A stretch of DNA of 43,499 nt, from positions 1 through 43,499 of the forward strand of contig JALVTE010000035.1 in the NCBI GenBank assembly GCA_027024155.1. Reading direction: 5' to 3'. The stretch is from Campylobacteraceae bacterium (GTDB lineage Bacteria; Campylobacterota; Campylobacteria; Campylobacterales; Sulfurovaceae). Below are positions 429 to 39,893 of the stretch, piece after piece (position 1 is the first letter of the stretch; each line of letters begins with the position of its first letter). The translations under genes and the position numbers were made by a program. Below the pieces are notes generated by a model that was not told where the DNA came from, did no database searches, and saw only the letters and a list, made by a program, of their open reading frames with translations.

Positions 429-2354
429 ATGCCAAATTTAGTAGAAGTAACTTACGAACAGACAGGAAAGAGTAAAATGATTAATGAGCTAGGTATGCGA
501 GAAATGCAAGCTAAAGCTTATGAGCAGAGAGATGCTAAGTATTTGTTGATTAAAGCACCACCGGCTTCTGGAAAGTCTAGGGCATTGATGTTTATTGCAC
601 TTGATAAGCTTGTAAATCAAGGTATTAAAAAAGTGATTGTAGCTGTTCCTGAGAAATCTATTGGTAGTTCGTTTGGTAGTACCAATTTAAAACAGTTTGG
701 ATTTTTTGCTAATTGGGAGGTAGAAGAGAGATATAACCTCTGTATGGCAAAAAATAACAGAAGAACTGTTGATATTTTTAAAGAGTTTTTAGATAGTGAT
801 GAGAAGATATTAATCTGTACCCATTCTACGCTAAGATTTGCATTTGAGCAGTTGAGTGAATCTAAGTTTAATGATACGCTGTTGGCGATAGATGAGTTTC
901 ATCATGTATCGGCGGATGGAGAGAATAGACTTGGCGAAGTATTAAGAAGTTTAATTGAAAATTCAAATTGTCATATAGTAGCGATGACAGGTTCTTACTT
1001 TAGGGGTGACAGTGTGCCTGTGCTTTTGCCAGAAGATGAAGCAAAATTTACAAAGGTTACTTATAATTACTACGAGCAATTAAATGGGTATGAGTATTTA
1101 AAGTCGCTTGGTATTGGGTATCACTTTTATCAGGGTAAATATACAAGTGCATTAGATGAAGTATTAGATACAGATAAAAAGACTATTTTGCATATTCCAA
1201 ATGTAAACGCTACAGAATCTACAAAAGATAAATATCAAGAGGTTAATACAATTATTGACATTATTGGAGAGGTAGAGGAGGTTACGGATGATGGAGTTAT
1301 TATTGTAAAACGACACAAAGATGGTAAATTGATAAAAGTAGCTGATTTGGTTGAGGATGATGAAAAATCAAGAGCAAAAATTGACCACTATCTTAATACT
1401 CATAAGGGTATAGACGATATGGATCTTATTATTGCTCTTGGTAAAGCCAAAGAGGGGTTTGACTGGCCATATTGTGAACACGCTTTAACTGTTGGGTATA
1501 GAGGCTCACTTACTGAAATTATACAGATTATTGGTCGTGCTACGAGAGATAGCGAGAATAAGACAACGGCACAGTTTACAAACCTTATAGCCCAGCCTGA
1601 TGCCGATAATGATGAAGTTAAGTTGTCTGTAAACAATATGCTAAAAGCTATTACTTCGTCGCTTTTAATGGAGCAAGTTCTTGCACCTAGCTTTAAATTT
1701 AAACCACGATTTGATAATGATGACGAAGTAGCTAAAAAAGGTGAGTTGAAAATAAGAGGATTTAAAAAGCCTACTAGCAAAAAAGTGAATGATATTATCG
1801 AGAGCGACTTAAACGATTTAAAAGCGACTATACTACAAGACCCTCAAATGCTAAAAGCGATGCCGGGCAATATTGAACCAGAGGTTATAAATGAAGTTTT
1901 GATACCTAAGATAATTAAGATTAAGTATCCTGATTTAGATGAGAATGAAGTTAAAGAGTTAAGTCAATATGTTGTGATAGATAGGGTTATTAGAAATGCT
2001 ACTATAGAGACTAATGGTGATAAAAAATTTATAAGAATGGCTGATAAATTTATTAATTTGGATGATTTAAATATCGACTTAATTAAGAGTATTAACCCTT
2101 TTCAGCAGGCATTTGAGATTTTGTCTAAACAAGTGACTACGGGTGTGCTTAAGCTTATTCAAGAGTCTATAGAGGCTACAAGAATTAAGATGGATTTTGA
2201 AGAGGCTAAGATTTTATGGTCAAAAATTCAAGAATTTGTAAAAGAGTTTGGCAAAGAGCCAGATTTGAATTCTGCCGATGCTAAAGAGAGAAGAATGGCT
2301 GAGTGTATTATCTATTTAAAAGAAGAAAAAAGAAAAAGAGCTGATAATGGATAA
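429..2354 (+). CDS. DEAD/DEAH-box (superfamily 2) helicase paired with a GIY-YIG nuclease
   Basis: The 641-residue protein has superfamily 2 helicase motifs: Walker A APPASGKS (43-50), DEFHH box (155-159), motif III-like MTGSYFRGD (186-194), EGFDW (342-346) and motif VI QIIGRATRD (366-374). It resembles the Res-type translocase subunits of restriction systems, but no methyltransferase or nuclease domain is visible in it. The last 50 residues hold a small helical module (IQEFVKEFGKEPDLNS then ERRMAE) that resembles the start of the next gene product. The ATG follows AAGGAG. The gene overlaps the nuclease gene by 8 bp, so the two are probably co-translated. A role in DNA restriction or phage defence is inferred from this pairing, not shown. 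Confidence 0.85.
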   Translation: MPNLVEVTYEQTGKSKMINELGMREMQAKAYEQRDAKYLLIKAPPASGKSRALMFIALDKLVNQGIKKVIVAVPEKSIGSSFGSTNLKQFGFFANWEVEERYNLCMAKNNRRTVDIFKEFLDSDEKILICTHSTLRFAFEQLSESKFNDTLLAIDEFHHVSADGENRLGEVLRSLIENSNCHIVAMTGSYFRGDSVPVLLPEDEAKFTKVTYNYYEQLNGYEYLKSLGIGYHFYQGKYTSALDEVLDTDKKTILHIPNVNATESTKDKYQEVNTIIDIIGEVEEVTDDGVIIVKRHKDGKLIKVADLVEDDEKSRAKIDHYLNTHKGIDDMDLIIALGKAKEGFDWPYCEHALTVGYRGSLTEIIQIIGRATRDSENKTTAQFTNLIAQPDADNDEVKLSVNNMLKAITSSLLMEQVLAPSFKFKPRFDNDDEVAKKGELKIRGFKKPTSKKVNDIIESDLNDLKATILQDPQMLKAMPGNIEPEVINEVLIPKIIKIKYPDLDENEVKELSQYVVIDRVIRNATIETNGDKKFIRMADKFINLDDLNIDLIKSINPFQQAFEILSKQVTTGVLKLIQESIEATRIKMDFEEAKILWSKIQEFVKEFGKEPDLNSADAKERRMAECIIYLKEEKRKRADNG

Positions 2355-3507
2355 AGAGACAATTCTTAACGATATATTCAACAGTGATACTTTGGGAATA
2401 TTGGAAATAAAAGCTAAAAATTCAGTAGTAACCGCTGATGATAGATTGATAGCCTCTTTTAAAGAGATTAATGACTTTTACGAGAAAAATAGTTGCGAAC
2501 CTAAAAAAAGTACCGATATGAATGAGAGAAAACTATACTCGCGACTTAAAGGGTTGCGAGATAATTCTAAAAAGATTCAGGCTCTTAAAAAATATGATAG
2601 ATATAATCTTTTGAGTGTGGATAAAATAGACTCTATTGATGATATTTTAAATAGTGATGTTTTTGGTATTTTTGATAAAGAAGATGAAGAGGATATTTTT
2701 ACACTAAAGAATGTTCCTAAAATAGAAAAAGAGAGAGCCGAGGCTGACTTTGTAGCGAGAAGAAAAAAACTTGAGGATTTTAAAAAATACGAAGAGATGT
2801 TTGCACAATGTCAGAGAGATTTAAAAAATGGTAAAAGAAAGCTTGCTAAATTTAATGAAAAGCAGTTTGAAAAAGGTGCTTTTTTTGTGCTTAAAGGGGT
2901 TTTGGTATATTTAGAAGATATTATTAACCCAAAGAAAGACAAAAATTATAAACTAGATGCTAGAACTACTACTATATTTGAGAATGGAACATACTCAAAT
3001 ATGCTACTTCGCTCACTAGGAAAAGGTTTGTATGAAGATGGGTATTTTGTAAGTGAGCACGAAGATAGAGTGCTTGACAAATTGAGTCCAATTAGTAGTG
3101 AAGATACACAAAATGGATATATTTATATATTAAAATCTTTAAGTATCGATGATAGAATTGTTACAAAAAAGAATTTATACAAAATAGGATTTTCAACAAC
3201 AGCAGTTGAGACAAGAATTAAAAATGCTAAACAAGACCCAACTTATTTAATGGCGGATGTTAAAATAGTATCGGTTTATGAAGTTTATAATGTTAATCCT
3301 CATAAGCTAGAACAGTTGATACATCGTTTTTTTAGTAATACTCGCCTTGATATAGATATTATTGATAACGAGGGAAAAATATATAAACCAAGAGAGTGGT
3401 TTATTGCCCCTTTGAATGTAATAGAAGAGGCTATTGAGCTTATAATAAGCGGTAGTATTGTTAATTATCGTTATGATGAGGTCAATGAAAAAATTTGTTT
3501 AAAGTAG
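2347..3507 (+). CDS. T5orf172-type GIY-YIG nuclease, partner of the helicase
   Basis: The 386-residue protein has a C-terminal T5orf172 domain of the GIY-YIG superfamily (about 255-365): GYIYILKS as the GIY element, LYKIGFS as the YIG element, a downstream arginine in VETRIKNA, a glutamate in HKLEQLIHRFF and a closing EWF. The middle (about 120-190) is charged and probably helical. The N-terminus (about 29-71) contains FKEINDFY followed by ERKLYSRLKGL, a pattern shared with the C-terminus of the overlapping helicase. The start codon lies inside the helicase gene, giving an 8-bp overlap. Proteins of this layout are known as GIY-YIG family proteins next to helicases; the target is unknown. Confidence 0.85.
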   Translation: MDKETILNDIFNSDTLGILEIKAKNSVVTADDRLIASFKEINDFYEKNSCEPKKSTDMNERKLYSRLKGLRDNSKKIQALKKYDRYNLLSVDKIDSIDDILNSDVFGIFDKEDEEDIFTLKNVPKIEKERAEADFVARRKKLEDFKKYEEMFAQCQRDLKNGKRKLAKFNEKQFEKGAFFVLKGVLVYLEDIINPKKDKNYKLDARTTTIFENGTYSNMLLRSLGKGLYEDGYFVSEHEDRVLDKLSPISSEDTQNGYIYILKSLSIDDRIVTKKNLYKIGFSTTAVETRIKNAKQDPTYLMADVKIVSVYEVYNVNPHKLEQLIHRFFSNTRLDIDIIDNEGKIYKPREWFIAPLNVIEEAIELIISGSIVNYRYDEVNEKICLK

Positions 3508-3612
3508 AAGTGTCTTTAAATTTAACCATAATTGTATATTAGAAGTTAATAATCTTTAACAAAATCATTTGCCAAATCTTTGTTGATTCTAATATAATAT
3601 TTGGATTAAAAC

Positions 3613-3711
3613 TTACAACTTTATATAGTGCGTGCAAGATATTTGTAACAGTATTAACATTTTTTTAATACTTCTAAGATACAATTTCTTGTGGTTTTTA
3701 AAGAAAACCAT
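3613..3711 (-). CDS. Possible 32-residue hydrophobic, basic small protein
   Basis: The minus strand has an ATG at 3711, preceded at six bases by AGGTGG (3718-3723), and an open frame of 32 codons ending in TAA at 3613. The product begins MVFFKNHKKLYLRSIKK, has a hydrophobic stretch MLILLQI, and ends basic. It lies inside the transcript expected from the FNR-type box at 3880. The start codon sits in the stem of a hairpin (3692-3698 with 3704-3710), and another hairpin (3723-3732 with 3748-3757) abuts the ribosome-binding site. Length, charge and the structured leader resemble type I toxins such as Helicobacter AapA, but this is a resemblance from memory, and chance is a real alternative. Confidence 0.3.
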   Translation of the reverse strand: MVFFKNHKKLYLRSIKKMLILLQISCTHYIKL

Positions 3712-3846
3712 TAAATGCCACCTATATACTGGTAAGTTGGTGCTAATCCAGTATATAAACTTAAATAACACTTCGATGGAACATTAACTTGTTCCATCTT
3801 TAGAGTGCTTTTATTAAACACTCTAAAGATGGAATTACTATATACT
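3613..3846 (-). ncRNA. Candidate structured transcript under an FNR-type promoter
   Basis: A minus-strand transcript starting near 3845 would fold into several hairpins. The first is a perfect 16-bp stem (3819-3834 with 3792-3807). A competing 9-bp stem (3790-3798 with 3775-3783) shares the bases at 3792-3798, so the two are mutually exclusive. Further on are TATATACTGG/CCAGTATATA (3748-3757 with 3723-3732), a stem at 3704-3710 with 3692-3698, and one at 3665-3671 with 3651-3657. No strong U-tract terminator is seen, so the 3' end is a guess. It could be a regulatory RNA or the leader of the small ORF at 3613-3711. Confidence 0.4.
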
Positions 3847-3851
3847 CCCAT

Positions 3852-3893
3852 ATTCTACATCTATTATATAAAGTTATTATTGATATAAATCAA
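3852..3893 (-). promoter_or_regulatory. Orphan FNR-type box with a leftward -10
   Basis: TTGATATAAATCAA at 3880-3893 is a perfect TTGAT-N4-ATCAA dyad. On the minus strand TAGAAT (3857-3852) begins 29.5 bp from the dyad centre, the spacing seen at most other boxes in the window. On the plus strand only TAATTC lies at that spacing. No annotated gene starts in either direction: the neighbours converge on this region. Confidence 0.6.
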
Positions 3894-4031
3894 TTATATG
3901 ATATTAATACTGAATTAATTCTGAAGAGAGTTTAGAAGTGCCTTTAATCCAAATGATTTGATAAAGGTTGTTAATTTCTAATGCGATATTTGGTTTTAGA
4001 TATTTGCTTTTAATGGTATAGGTATTAAAGT

Positions 4032-32624: not shown

Positions 32625-32662
32625 AAATTGTGATACTATATACCAACTTTTGGGAGGTGTAT

Positions 32663-33364
32663 ATGTATAATATAGATGAAATACCATTTTTTGCTACTTT
32701 ACCAAAGCCTTACCAGAATATGATAAAAGAGAAACTCTTTACTAAACATTATACAAAAGGGAGTATAGTTTTTTTCGAGGGTGATAGAAGTAAGTATATG
32801 TATATAGTTTTAGAAGGTAGTGTAAAGATGTATAAAACTACCCCTAAAGGTAATCAAGTACATATAAATATACTTAATGCCCCCTCCTTAATTGGTGAGT
32901 ATATATATTTTGAAGATCAAGCCTTTCCTGCTACTTGTGAATTTGTTACAGATGGAGTTATTGGCTTATTACCATTTAGCTTAATTGAAGATTTATTAAC
33001 ACATAAAGAGTTTGCAAAGGCAATTATTCGCTCTCTTACTGGAAAAATTGCACTATTATCTACACTTATTCATCAAGAGACAGTATTAAGTTCAGAAGCA
33101 AAAGTGGCAGATATAATTATACGTAAAGAGTCTATTTTTCAGAGACTTAAAAATAGTGAAATAGCTTCTATATTAAATGTGACACCAGAGACTTTTTCAA
33201 GAATTTTAGCTAAGTTCAAAAAAGAGGGAATCATATCAATAAAAGCCCATAAACTAGAAGTTTTGGATAGAAAAAAACTTGAAATTATTTTAGAGACAAA
33301 TAAGGTTAAAGAGTGCAATGATTGCATAGTTAATTTTAAAAAGCAGATAGGATTTGAAGATTAG
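32663..33364 (+). CDS. CRP/FNR-family regulator of denitrification (DNR/NNR-like)
   Basis: The 233-residue protein has an N-terminal cNMP-binding-type beta-roll (about 15-115, GSIVFFEGDRSKYMYIVLEGSV), a dimerisation helix and a C-terminal helix-turn-helix with recognition helix TPETFSRILAKF (about 181-192). The E-x-x-S-R arrangement is that of FNR, which reads TTGAT. No N-terminal cysteine cluster for Fe-S is present, so an oxygen-sensing FNR role is unlikely; a NO or haem sensor of the DNR kind is more likely. A late CNDC (about 217-220) is unusual. The ATG at 32663 follows GGGAGGTG; it lies downstream of a TTGAT box. Confidence 0.85.
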   Translation: MYNIDEIPFFATLPKPYQNMIKEKLFTKHYTKGSIVFFEGDRSKYMYIVLEGSVKMYKTTPKGNQVHINILNAPSLIGEYIYFEDQAFPATCEFVTDGVIGLLPFSLIEDLLTHKEFAKAIIRSLTGKIALLSTLIHQETVLSSEAKVADIIIRKESIFQRLKNSEIASILNVTPETFSRILAKFKKEGIISIKAHKLEVLDRKKLEIILETNKVKECNDCIVNFKKQIGFED

Positions 33365-35965: not shown

Positions 35966-36125
35966 ATAATTGCCTTTTTTAGTAACAATTATATGTATGA
36001 AAATGAAAACAAGATGAAAACTAAAAAAACCACTTCGGCAATAGTGCCTATATTGATTTTGGAGCTAAATTGCAAGTGCTTATTTTATATATTTTTATTT
36101 TCAAAAAACTTTATCTCTATTTCGC

Positions 36126-36131
36126 TATAAT
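36126..36131 (+). promoter_or_regulatory. Likely -10 of the FtsK-type cluster
   Basis: TATAAT lies 35 bases before the ATG at 36166 and is preceded by an A/T-rich run with no clear -35. It also sits in the 200-base divergent space between the phosphatase and the FtsK-type gene. Confidence 0.4.
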
Positions 36132-36165
36132 AAATGAAAGCAATAAAGAAAAGGGAAACTCTGAA

Positions 36166-37899
36166 ATGCCAATTAAAAACCAATCTTTCCCATGGGGAAT
36201 TTACATAGGCGACCTAACAGACAACATCGACAACATACCACTATGTTTAGATAGTAAACAGGGTGGTTTTTGTGTTCTATTTGATGATAGCAGTGAACAG
36301 ATAGCCAATAACTTTATAGAGAATATCGCACTAAAGCTTTTTGAAGTGTTACCTATTGGAGATATAGTTGTAGATATTTTTGATTTTTCACACAAAAAAA
36401 GATTTATGCACCTCTCTTCACTCCAAAAAGAGAAGCTTTATGATATTGCTTTTAATCAAAACTCGGCTACCAATAAATTTAACACTATAGAAGAGATAGC
36501 TCTAAACCGACATCATACTATTCTTGACTTTGCTACACCTACTATTTCAGATTATAATCAACAGAGTAAATTTAAAGAGCAGTATCATCTGCTTCTTATA
36601 AACTTAGACTCTTTTCCTGATGAGATGACTTCACAAAAGAGGGTCAAAAACTTTTTTGATTCGGCTTTTGAGGCAGGGTTTTATGCTATTGCTTTTGGAA
36701 ATCAAGAGGTATTGAAAAGTGAATCAAAAGCTACACAAGCCATTTTAAACCACTTTTCACATCTAAATATAGTAAACAAAAAGATAAAACTTAGTAAAGA
36801 GCTTTTTGCATTTACAAATTTAATAGAAAATTACGAGTTTGAATATGTCAATGATAACAAAGATAAAATCATTAAAAATCTATTAGCCAAGTTAGTAAAA
36901 GAGGATAACTCTAGTGGAGAAAAAGATTTTTTATCTGCTCCTATTGGTACTTCTAAAAATGGTAGAGATACCATCTATTTTACTATGGGAGATAAATCGG
37001 ATAATTATCATGCGTTTATTACAGGAGTTACAGGTTCAGGGAAGACCACACTTTTAAATAACATCATTACAAGTATTGCCCAGAAATATACCTCTGATGA
37101 GATTCAACTCTATCTTATGGATTACAAAGATGGTGTAGAGTTTCAACTCTTTAAAAATCATCCAAATTGTAAAAAGATATTTTTAGACAATGAAGATTTA
37201 GAAGCATCTATCTCTTTACTAGAGGAGTTTAGAGATACTATGAGAAGTCGTGCAACCATATTTAAACAGTATGAGGTTAATAACATAACAGCTTATAACA
37301 AACTCAACCCTCAAAAACCAATGCCAAGGATTGTGCTTATTATAGATGAGGTGCATAAGCTTTTTGTGGGAGATTATGGTTATGTAGAAAGATTTAGCTC
37401 TATCTTAAAACCTCTTATGCGTCAAGGTCGCTCTTATGGTGTGCATATTATATTTGCTACCCAATCTTTAGCAGGTACACAGATAGACCGTGAGTTAATG
37501 GGGCAGATAACACTTAGAGTATCATTTAAACTAACTGACCCTAGTGATAGTGAAACCATCTTTACCTATGGCAATACAGAGGCTCTAAATCTTGAAAAGT
37601 ATGAGCTGATTTATAATAACAATGCAGGAAACAAAAGAGATAATCTTCTTTGTAGGGCAAATCCTCCTTTAGATATAAAGAGTGTGATAGATGATGTGTT
37701 GTTTTTAAGAGAAGAGAGGTTGATTTTGAAACCTGTGATTGTGAAGAGTAAAGAGAAAAAAGAAGAAGAGGTTGTGGAAGTGAAAGAGAGAGCAAAATCT
37801 ACTTTTAAAAGTAAGTTTGGTACAAGTGCAGAAGATGATATGTTGGCTAAAATTGAGAAAGAGAGGGGAATAACTCCTAATTATGGAGGTGTGGAATGA
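36166..37899 (+). CDS. FtsK/SpoIIIE-type ATPase
   Basis: The 577-residue protein has a 280-residue N-terminal region without membrane helices and an FtsK/SpoIIIE ATPase domain: Walker A GVTGSGKTT (287-295), DYKDGVEFQ (about 319-327), Walker B IVLIIDE (389-395) and the sensor ATQSL (431-435), followed by DRELMGQITLRVSFK. The early PIGTSKNGRDTIYF segment is typical of EssC/FtsK-like proteins. The lack of membrane anchors separates it from cell-division FtsK. The ATG at 36166 was chosen over 36070 because AAGGGA precedes it. It overlaps the next gene by 4 bp. It probably drives transport or remodelling of DNA or protein for this cluster; the target is unknown. Confidence 0.85.
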   Translation: MPIKNQSFPWGIYIGDLTDNIDNIPLCLDSKQGGFCVLFDDSSEQIANNFIENIALKLFEVLPIGDIVVDIFDFSHKKRFMHLSSLQKEKLYDIAFNQNSATNKFNTIEEIALNRHHTILDFATPTISDYNQQSKFKEQYHLLLINLDSFPDEMTSQKRVKNFFDSAFEAGFYAIAFGNQEVLKSESKATQAILNHFSHLNIVNKKIKLSKELFAFTNLIENYEFEYVNDNKDKIIKNLLAKLVKEDNSSGEKDFLSAPIGTSKNGRDTIYFTMGDKSDNYHAFITGVTGSGKTTLLNNIITSIAQKYTSDEIQLYLMDYKDGVEFQLFKNHPNCKKIFLDNEDLEASISLLEEFRDTMRSRATIFKQYEVNNITAYNKLNPQKPMPRIVLIIDEVHKLFVGDYGYVERFSSILKPLMRQGRSYGVHIIFATQSLAGTQIDRELMGQITLRVSFKLTDPSDSETIFTYGNTEALNLEKYELIYNNNAGNKRDNLLCRANPPLDIKSVIDDVLFLREERLILKPVIVKSKEKKEEEVVEVKERAKSTFKSKFGTSAEDDMLAKIEKERGITPNYGGVE

Positions 37900-39893
37900 G
37901 TCAATCTCTTTTAAATATGAATTATCGTGAAACTTTAGATAATGTTGATAGTTATGAGGAGTATTTATCTAGCATTAAAGATACTTTAGATACTCAAGAA
38001 TGGAAAAAAGCTTTAAGTATAGATACTCAATATGCTTATAAAAATTATCTTTATAAATATTCTAATGGAGTTTATAAAGATAAAGCTCAAAAGAAAATAG
38101 ATTATTTTATTAAAATTGAAGCTAAAGAGGCTGATAAGAGAGCTTGGGAAAAGGCTAAGAAAAAGAACAGTAAAAAATCTTATGAAAAATATTTGATGAG
38201 TTATTATAATGGTATTTATAGTCATGAAGCTAAGAGAAAAGTAGATGAGTTTATTAGGTTAGAAAAAGAAGAGCATAGACTTGCAGTAGCTAAAGAGAAA
38301 GAAACTTGGGAACTTGTTTGCAGAAAAGATACTAAAGAAGATTATAAAAATTATTTAAAATTTTATCCTAATGGAATTTATTATAATGAAGCCAAAAAGA
38401 AAATTAAACACATAAAGTTTAATGAAGATGTCGAAGCTTGGTCAAAAGCATGTCTTAAAAATACATATACAGAATATATAAAATATTGTCAAAATTTTCC
38501 AAATGGTATTCAATTTGAAGAAGCTGAACGAAAAGCTACACTTTTATATAAAGAGCTTACTCCAAAAACCAATTATTCAGGACAAAGATTATTTACTTTT
38601 CAAAAAAATGGTAAGTATGGTGTAGTTGATATAACTGATAAAATTATTTTAAAAGCACAATATAATCAAATAGAATTTATTGGAAATAGATATATCTTAG
38701 TTCATTCAGACGGATATAAACAAGGATTATATAGCACAAGTGGAAAAGAGATAATTGCCTTAGGTGATTATGATTTAAGAGTAGATGGTGATGGATATAA
38801 AACTGAAATTGAAAAAGAAGATAATCCACATGATTATTATACATTTGCTACTATTTCTTATAATAAACAATGGATTGACAATTCAAGTTTTATGAAAATG
38901 TTTGATTCTTCAGTGATTAAAATAATAGATATAAAAAATGATACATTTGGTTATATCTATAAAAATAATGATGAATTAATTCTAGAACCTATATATAAAA
39001 ATATTGAATTAATTAAGAGTGGAGTAGGAATTATACGGACTAGAAATGATAAATATGGCTTAATTAATAAACAATATAGAATAATTTTAGAACCTAAATA
39101 TGATTTAATTATAACTCACAACCCTTATGATATATTTATTGTGAGTATATTTGACAATAAAGATAATTCTATTAGTGGACTTGTTAATTTGAAGGGAGAA
39201 ATAGTTATTCCTTGTATTTTTGATTGGATTGAAACATTAGATAATGGTTGTTTTATAGCCCATAAGAATGAGAAAGGTAACATTTTAATAAACTCTTATG
39301 GAGAAAAAATCACCAACTATTATACTCACATAACTTACTTAAAAAAAGAGAAAATATTTTTAATCGAGGATAATGATAAGTTTGGTTTCACCAATACCAA
39401 AGGGAAAATAACTATTGAACCAGAACTTGATGAAGTGTATAGTGGTAATTTTAGTTCATATGGACACAAACCCAATGATACAAGCCATAAATATCTTTTT
39501 TTTAATGATATAGAAGAACCAATAAAAGTAAAAAAAGACAATAAGTATGGTTTTATCGACAAAAGAGGGAGTTATCTCTTATATCCAAAATATAACTATA
39601 TTAGTTATCAAGAATATATATCTAAAAATGTATATTTATATCTAATTGCAGAGGATTCAAATGGATATAAAAAAGGATTTCTTATATATAATAATGGTAA
39701 AACGACTACAGTATTTAGTAAAACTATAGACATAACATATATTAATTTATTAAATAAAAATTTAATAGAGTTTAGTGATACTGCATTTGGAAGAGGTATT
39801 AGTACAATAGATGGAAAGATATTATTAGAATCTACAAATCCTATATCCTATAAATTTAAAAAGAATAAAATTATTGAAGAGTATAAAAAATGA
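37896..39893 (+). CDS. WG-repeat protein with N-terminal helical repeats
   Basis: The 665-residue protein has two repeat regions. Residues about 33-215 hold four helical units of roughly 45 residues, with consensus W-x2-A-x6-Y-x2-Y, then PNG/YNG-Y-x2-EA. Residues about 230-640 hold at least six WG (KWG)-type units (NGKYGVVDITDKIILKAQY, DKYGLINKQYRIILEPKY, DKFGFTNTKGKITIEPEL, NKYGFIDKRGSYLLYPKY). These probably form a beta-rich, solenoid-like binding surface. It has no signal peptide or membrane helix. WG-repeat proteins are widespread and mostly of unknown role. It overlaps its neighbours by 4 bp on each side (ATGA), so translation is coupled to the FtsK-type and next genes. Confidence 0.8.
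   Translation: MSQSLLNMNYRETLDNVDSYEEYLSSIKDTLDTQEWKKALSIDTQYAYKNYLYKYSNGVYKDKAQKKIDYFIKIEAKEADKRAWEKAKKKNSKKSYEKYLMSYYNGIYSHEAKRKVDEFIRLEKEEHRLAVAKEKETWELVCRKDTKEDYKNYLKFYPNGIYYNEAKKKIKHIKFNEDVEAWSKACLKNTYTEYIKYCQNFPNGIQFEEAERKATLLYKELTPKTNYSGQRLFTFQKNGKYGVVDITDKIILKAQYNQIEFIGNRYILVHSDGYKQGLYSTSGKEIIALGDYDLRVDGDGYKTEIEKEDNPHDYYTFATISYNKQWIDNSSFMKMFDSSVIKIIDIKNDTFGYIYKNNDELILEPIYKNIELIKSGVGIIRTRNDKYGLINKQYRIILEPKYDLIITHNPYDIFIVSIFDNKDNSISGLVNLKGEIVIPCIFDWIETLDNGCFIAHKNEKGNILINSYGEKITNYYTHITYLKKEKIFLIEDNDKFGFTNTKGKITIEPELDEVYSGNFSSYGHKPNDTSHKYLFFNDIEEPIKVKKDNKYGFIDKRGSYLLYPKYNYISYQEYISKNVYLYLIAEDSNGYKKGFLIYNNGKTTTVFSKTIDITYINLLNKNLIEFSDTAFGRGISTIDGKILLESTNPISYKFKKNKIIEEYKK

What the first reader, a model, noticed from the sequence alone, without database searches (positions are those of the whole stretch)
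3613..3893. Orphan FNR-type promoter driving a structured transcript with a possible 32-residue protein
A perfect TTGAT-N4-ATCAA dyad (3880-3893) lies between two convergent genes, with no annotated target. On the minus strand TAGAAT begins exactly 29.5 bp from its centre, as at most other boxes here. The transcript would fold into several hairpins, two of them mutually exclusive (3819-3834 with 3792-3807 versus 3790-3798 with 3775-3783), and contains a 32-codon ORF with AGGTGG six bases before its ATG. This could be an oxygen- or NO-responsive small RNA, or a type I toxin-like gene with a metastable leader.
Basis: partly seen in the sequence, partly recalled or inferred. Interest (0 to 1): 0.72.

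Follow-up and report, generated by a model that had tools for sequence, protein, structure and literature searches.

The report
Stranded nosZ promoter and folded leader
The stretch is a stranded copy of the control region (promoter plus a folded RNA leader) that in related vent bacteria sits directly in front of the gene for the N2O-destroying enzyme NosZ; this genome shows no nosZ, and the proposed 32-residue protein is not conserved.

Summary
The DNA features are real: a perfect TTGAT-N4-ATCAA box (3880-3893), a -10 TAGAAT 29.5 bp away on the minus strand, a 19-bp hairpin and an overlapping 9-bp hairpin, and a 32-codon ORF after AGGTGG. The reading changes. The same block occurs in four other genomes (62-87% pairwise identity across the hairpin-to-operator core), each time as promoter and leader of clade II nosZ. 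Box and -10 spacing are identical in all five. Both hairpins are kept, with compensatory base-pair changes. The ORF is not kept: its start codon is ATA in two relatives, frame-shifted in one, absent in one; its best-conserved part looks like a DNA operator (GTRTTAA-N4-GTRTTAA). Resemblance to H. pylori AapA toxins is at chance level. The window's genome (97% complete) has no detectable nosZ or nosD but carries NirS/NorB-like genes and a Crp/Fnr regulator with its own box. The copy stops at a dispersed inverted repeat, in a segment inserted between fic and groEL. Best reading: a severed nosZ control region, probably still able to make a ~230-nt non-coding RNA under an Nss-type Crp/Fnr regulator. 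Whether that orphan RNA does anything is open. The undescribed nosZ leader, with one segment shared by two competing hairpins, is the most interesting part.

The parts
3880..3893 (-). Crp/Fnr (Nss)-type box TTGATTTATATCAA
   Evidence: present in all five homologous loci
3852..3857 (-). -10 element TAGAAT (TGTARAAT in all five), 29.5 bp from the box centre; start of transcription inferred near 3845
   Evidence: the start site itself is inferred
3792..3834 (-). hairpin 1: 19 bp, all pairs intact in the window
   Evidence: five pairs with changes on both sides across five sequences
3775..3798 (-). hairpin 2: 9 bp, sharing GATGGAA with the lower half of hairpin 1
   Evidence: two pairs with changes on both sides
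3723..3757 (-). hairpin 3 (TATATACTGG/CCAGTATATA), ending at AGGTGG; a counterpart in G173 and G008, deleted in G004 and G178
3712..3723 (-). AGGTGGCATTTA motif (SD-like), conserved as RGTGRCRKTTA in the nosZ leaders although no ORF start follows in most
3654..3685 (-). ATTGTATCTTAGAAGTATTAAAAAAATGTTAA: best conserved block; direct repeat GTRTTAA-N4-GTRTTAA, likely a regulator operator before nosZ
   Evidence: function inferred
3613..3711 (-).
   Evidence: start is ATA in G173 and G178, frame shifted in G004, absent in G008
3524..3612 (.). near-palindromic copy of a dispersed inverted-repeat (MITE-like) element that cuts off the nosZ-homologous segment
3943..4013 (.). half copy of the same repeat, inverted relative to 3524-3612, on the promoter side

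Best explanation
The interval 3613-3896 (minus strand) is the promoter and 5' leader of a nosZ gene that is no longer attached. In relatives a Crp/Fnr-type regulator (most likely of the Nss kind) binds the box and starts a transcript that folds into hairpin 1 and hairpin 2, which compete for the shared segment GATGGAA, and runs on into clade II nosZ; a second operator lies between the leader and nosZ. The leader probably acts in cis as a switch or a 5' stabiliser of nosZ mRNA. In the window's genome nosZ is gone and the segment ends at a dispersed inverted repeat, so the promoter can now only make a ~230-nt non-coding RNA running towards the 3' end of a nuclease gene. Shown: homology, nosZ linkage in four genomes, conserved box, spacing and hairpins, no nosZ found here, no conserved ORF. 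Inferred: regulator identity, transcription, the function of the competing hairpins, and how nosZ was lost.
For: DNA search: G004 match at 74% including the box. Further copies in G173 and G178 by peptide search and G008. All four lie before a NosZ ORF. Covariance model: these five and no other at E below 0.05 in 175 family genomes, and only two weak hits in a sample of 399 order genomes, one of them again a nosZ leader (G029). A pattern scan of genome contigs gave six hits: four with contig lengths equal to the nosZ contigs of G004, G008, G173 and G178, and two not examined (Haploplasma, Flavicella). Hairpin 1: 94.7% of cells paired, 5 pairs changed on both sides, 2-6 of 500 shuffles as high. 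Hairpin 2: 97.8% paired, 2 such pairs. No NosZ or NosD in G000, while the same searches find them in relatives. nirS/nor-like genes and a Crp/Fnr gene with a box 47 bp upstream in the window.
Against: G000 is a draft assembly (97.45% complete), so nosZ on a missing contig is not fully excluded. Hairpins are perfect in the orphan (19/19 and 9/9 pairs), which could mean retained function rather than relic status; but only 2 of 83 otherwise invariant columns changed uniquely in the window, too few to tell constraint from recency. No expression data. Hairpin 2 alone reaches only 40/500 in the shuffle control.
Confidence: 0.82

Rival explanations
1. A free-standing anaerobically or NO/N2O-induced small RNA that acts in trans in the window's strain; the nosZ linkage in relatives is its ancestral home and the orphan has been kept for its RNA function.
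For: Box, -10 and both hairpins are intact, hairpin 1 is the most stable of the five (-27.1 kcal/mol), and nosZ is not found.
Against: Only one genome has it without nosZ; divergence in the window is too small to show selection after the loss; no terminator-like site was found; no target tested.
Confidence: 0.15
2. A type I toxin-antitoxin module of the AapA/IsoA kind: a small membrane toxin with a metastable leader and an antisense RNA from a -10 inside the ORF.
For: KKLYLR resembles KTLYLK of AapA1; ATTGTATCTT gives an antisense TACAAT -10 conserved in all five; the Shine-Dalgarno-like AGGTGG can pair with upstream and downstream anti-SD segments.
Against: Start codon not conserved; alignment score to AapA1 is reached by 1932 of 5000 shuffles; no Pfam or PDB match; sits in a nosZ leader in relatives.
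Confidence: 0.04
3. Cargo of a mobile inverted-repeat element: the dispersed repeat captured the nosZ control region and moved it between fic and groEL.
For: Repeat halves in inverted orientation on both sides; 8 places in the genome; fic and groEL are direct neighbours in G004.
Against: The segment between fic and groEL also carries a helicase and a nuclease gene, so the insertion was larger; no clean target duplication; no other copy carrying the leader was found.
Confidence: 0.3
4. Chance: an AT-rich intergenic region with accidental box and hairpins.
For: Region is AT-rich.
Against: Homology, compensatory changes and nosZ linkage; z -7.05.
Confidence: 0.01

Closest known systems
Crp/Fnr (Nss)-regulated nosZ promoters of Campylobacterota (W. 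succinogenes NssA/B/C; PMC6682613, PMC11539149)
   Same: TTGA-N6-TCAA box before nosZ; denitrification genes and a Crp/Fnr gene in the same genome
   Different: Most nosZ leaders surveyed here have the box about 65-150 nt before the ATG; in these loci it lies 293-415 nt away with a hairpin leader between; in the window nosZ is missing
AapA/IsoA type I toxin-antitoxin of H. pylori (PMC6733600)
   Same: short ORF after a sequesterable Shine-Dalgarno-like site; competing hairpins; possible antisense -10 inside the ORF
   Different: ORF start not conserved, peptide similarity at chance level, located in a nosZ leader
Small RNA control of denitrification (denR/sRNA-29 of Paracoccus; PMC6686037)
   Same: RNA-level control of denitrification is known in principle
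   Different: denR is a trans-acting sRNA in an alphaproteobacterium; no sequence relation was tested

Membership tests
nosZ promoter and leader (this clade) | sequence and structure homology to regions directly upstream of nosZ | tested here: met
nosZ promoter and leader (this clade) | nosZ downstream | tested here: not met
   no NosZ or NosD found in the genome
Crp/Fnr-regulated promoter | TTGA-N6-TCAA box at fixed distance from a -10 | tested here: met
Crp/Fnr-regulated promoter | binding and induction by the regulator | not testable with these tools
   needs wet-lab work
AapA/IsoA type I toxin-antitoxin | conserved translatable small hydrophobic toxin | tested here: not met
AapA/IsoA type I toxin-antitoxin | antisense RNA from within the ORF | not testable with these tools
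   a TACAAT -10 is conserved, expression unknown
Rfam RNA families | match at gathering score | tested here: not met
Alternating-hairpin leader RNA | both alternative pairings conserved by compensatory change | tested here: met
   hairpin 2 weaker (40/500)

The most novel reading that the evidence does not exclude
A previously undescribed alternating-hairpin RNA that controls nosZ in vent Campylobacterota and that lives on as an independent small RNA in a strain with NirS/NorB-like genes but no detectable nosZ.
Probability: 0.15. Interest if true: 0.7.

Novelty: new variant of a known kind. Interest (0 to 1): 0.45.

Why it matters
NosZ is the enzyme that removes the greenhouse gas N2O. A folded leader with two competing hairpins in front of clade II nosZ would be a new layer of control over N2O removal, and the window shows a genome with nitrite- and NO-reduction-like genes in which nosZ is not detectable while its control region remains, which makes loss of nosZ directly traceable.

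Tried and rejected
Rfam: only the tRNA, and chance microRNA-like hits. Pfam and PDB with the peptide: nothing. AapA1 alignment: chance level. Plasmids and viral contigs: no related copy. Covariance model hits in G108 and G301: only the direct-repeat motif, not the leader. Accession lookup for the Nitratifractor contig failed.

Full report
What is there. The strict box TTGAT-N4-ATCAA occurs five times in the window against 0.15 expected. The minus-strand transcript region folds far better than shuffled sequence (z -7.05).

What it is related to. A DNA search of relatives found one clear homologue, in G004, whose contig length equals that of WFYP01000117.1, 'Nitratifractor sp.'. A six-frame search with the 32-residue peptide brought in G173 and G178, and the nosZ upstream regions showed a fifth copy in G008. 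In all four relatives the element lies directly before an ORF with the sequence of clade II NosZ. A covariance model of the five found no other convincing member in 175 genomes of the family and, in a sample of 399 genomes of the order, only a partial relative, in G029, again before nosZ. A pattern scan of genome contigs gave six hits, four with contig lengths equal to those four nosZ contigs and two that I did not examine. In most of the 74 nosZ upstream regions surveyed the box lies about 65-150 nt from the ATG; here it lies 293-415 nt away, because of the leader.

Conservation. The box and its distance to the -10 are the same in all five. Hairpin 1 forms in 94.7% of cells with five pairs changed on both sides (2-6 of 500 shuffles as high). 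Hairpin 2 forms in 97.8% with two such pairs (40 of 500). The two share GATGGAA; computed energies of the two states are close and differ in sign between species (+2.2 kcal/mol in the window favouring full hairpin 1, -4.2 in G008 favouring hairpin 2). This is what a switch would look like, but no ligand or partner is known.

The ORF. Its ATG is ATA in G173 and G178, is followed by a 2-nt insertion in G004 and is absent in G008. The strongly conserved stretch inside it is a direct repeat GTRTTAA-N4-GTRTTAA, which is also found upstream of the box before nosZ in another genus, before a Crp/Fnr gene elsewhere in this genome (there as GTATTAAAAAAATGTTAATAC) and in an intergenic region of G301. I read it as an operator; that is inference. 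Similarity to AapA1 is at chance level.

The genome. NosZ and NosD were not found in G000, with the same queries finding them in relatives. The window carries NirS/NorB-like and heme d1 synthesis-like genes and a Crp/Fnr regulator with a box just upstream. Reviews state that Campylobacterota lack FNR orthologues and use Nss-type Crp/Fnr proteins that respond to nitrate, NO and N2O (PMC6682613), so 'Nss-type' is the safer name for the box.

How it came here. In G004, whose GroEL is 97% identical over the 200 residues compared, groEL is directly convergent with a fic gene; in the window a helicase gene, a T5orf172 nuclease gene, two pieces of a dispersed inverted repeat and the nosZ-like segment lie between them. 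The homology to the nosZ locus ends about where the repeat begins (3612; one search shows weak similarity up to there, in G004 only). G004 also has a second uracil-DNA glycosylase gene next to nosZ, suggesting that nosZ blocks move between genera. Whether the window's copy was left by loss of nosZ or carried in is open.

Verdict. A detached nosZ control region with an undescribed structured leader. Confidence 0.82 for the homology-based reading; about 0.5 that the orphan is still transcribed; about 0.15 that it has a function of its own.

Noticed in passing
window 3524-3612 and 3943-4013: Dispersed inverted-repeat (MITE-like) family, 8 places in this genome and many in G001, G008 and G009.
   Followed up: partly
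window 429-3507: Helicase plus T5orf172 nuclease pair inserted between fic and groEL relative to G004; possible defence module.
   Followed up: no
window 3569-3598 (+): Strong promoter-like site (11 of 12) inside the repeat that would read antisense across the element.
   Followed up: no
L013 about 1500-1560 (G000:C121:37294): Promoter of a second Crp/Fnr gene carries the GTATTAAAAAAATGTTAATAC sequence found inside the 32-codon ORF.
   Followed up: partly
window 32583 and 32630-33361: Crp/Fnr regulator gene with a TTGATTTATATCAA box in its own promoter.
   Followed up: partly
L002 / L112 (G004:C117): Second uracil-DNA glycosylase gene next to nosZ, and NosZ 97% identical to G178 of another genus over the 222 residues compared: likely transfer of the nosZ block.
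   Followed up: partly
window 36070-39893: ATPase with weak similarity to SspH, mads_8 and HerA models of defence libraries, followed by a gene without matches.
   Followed up: no
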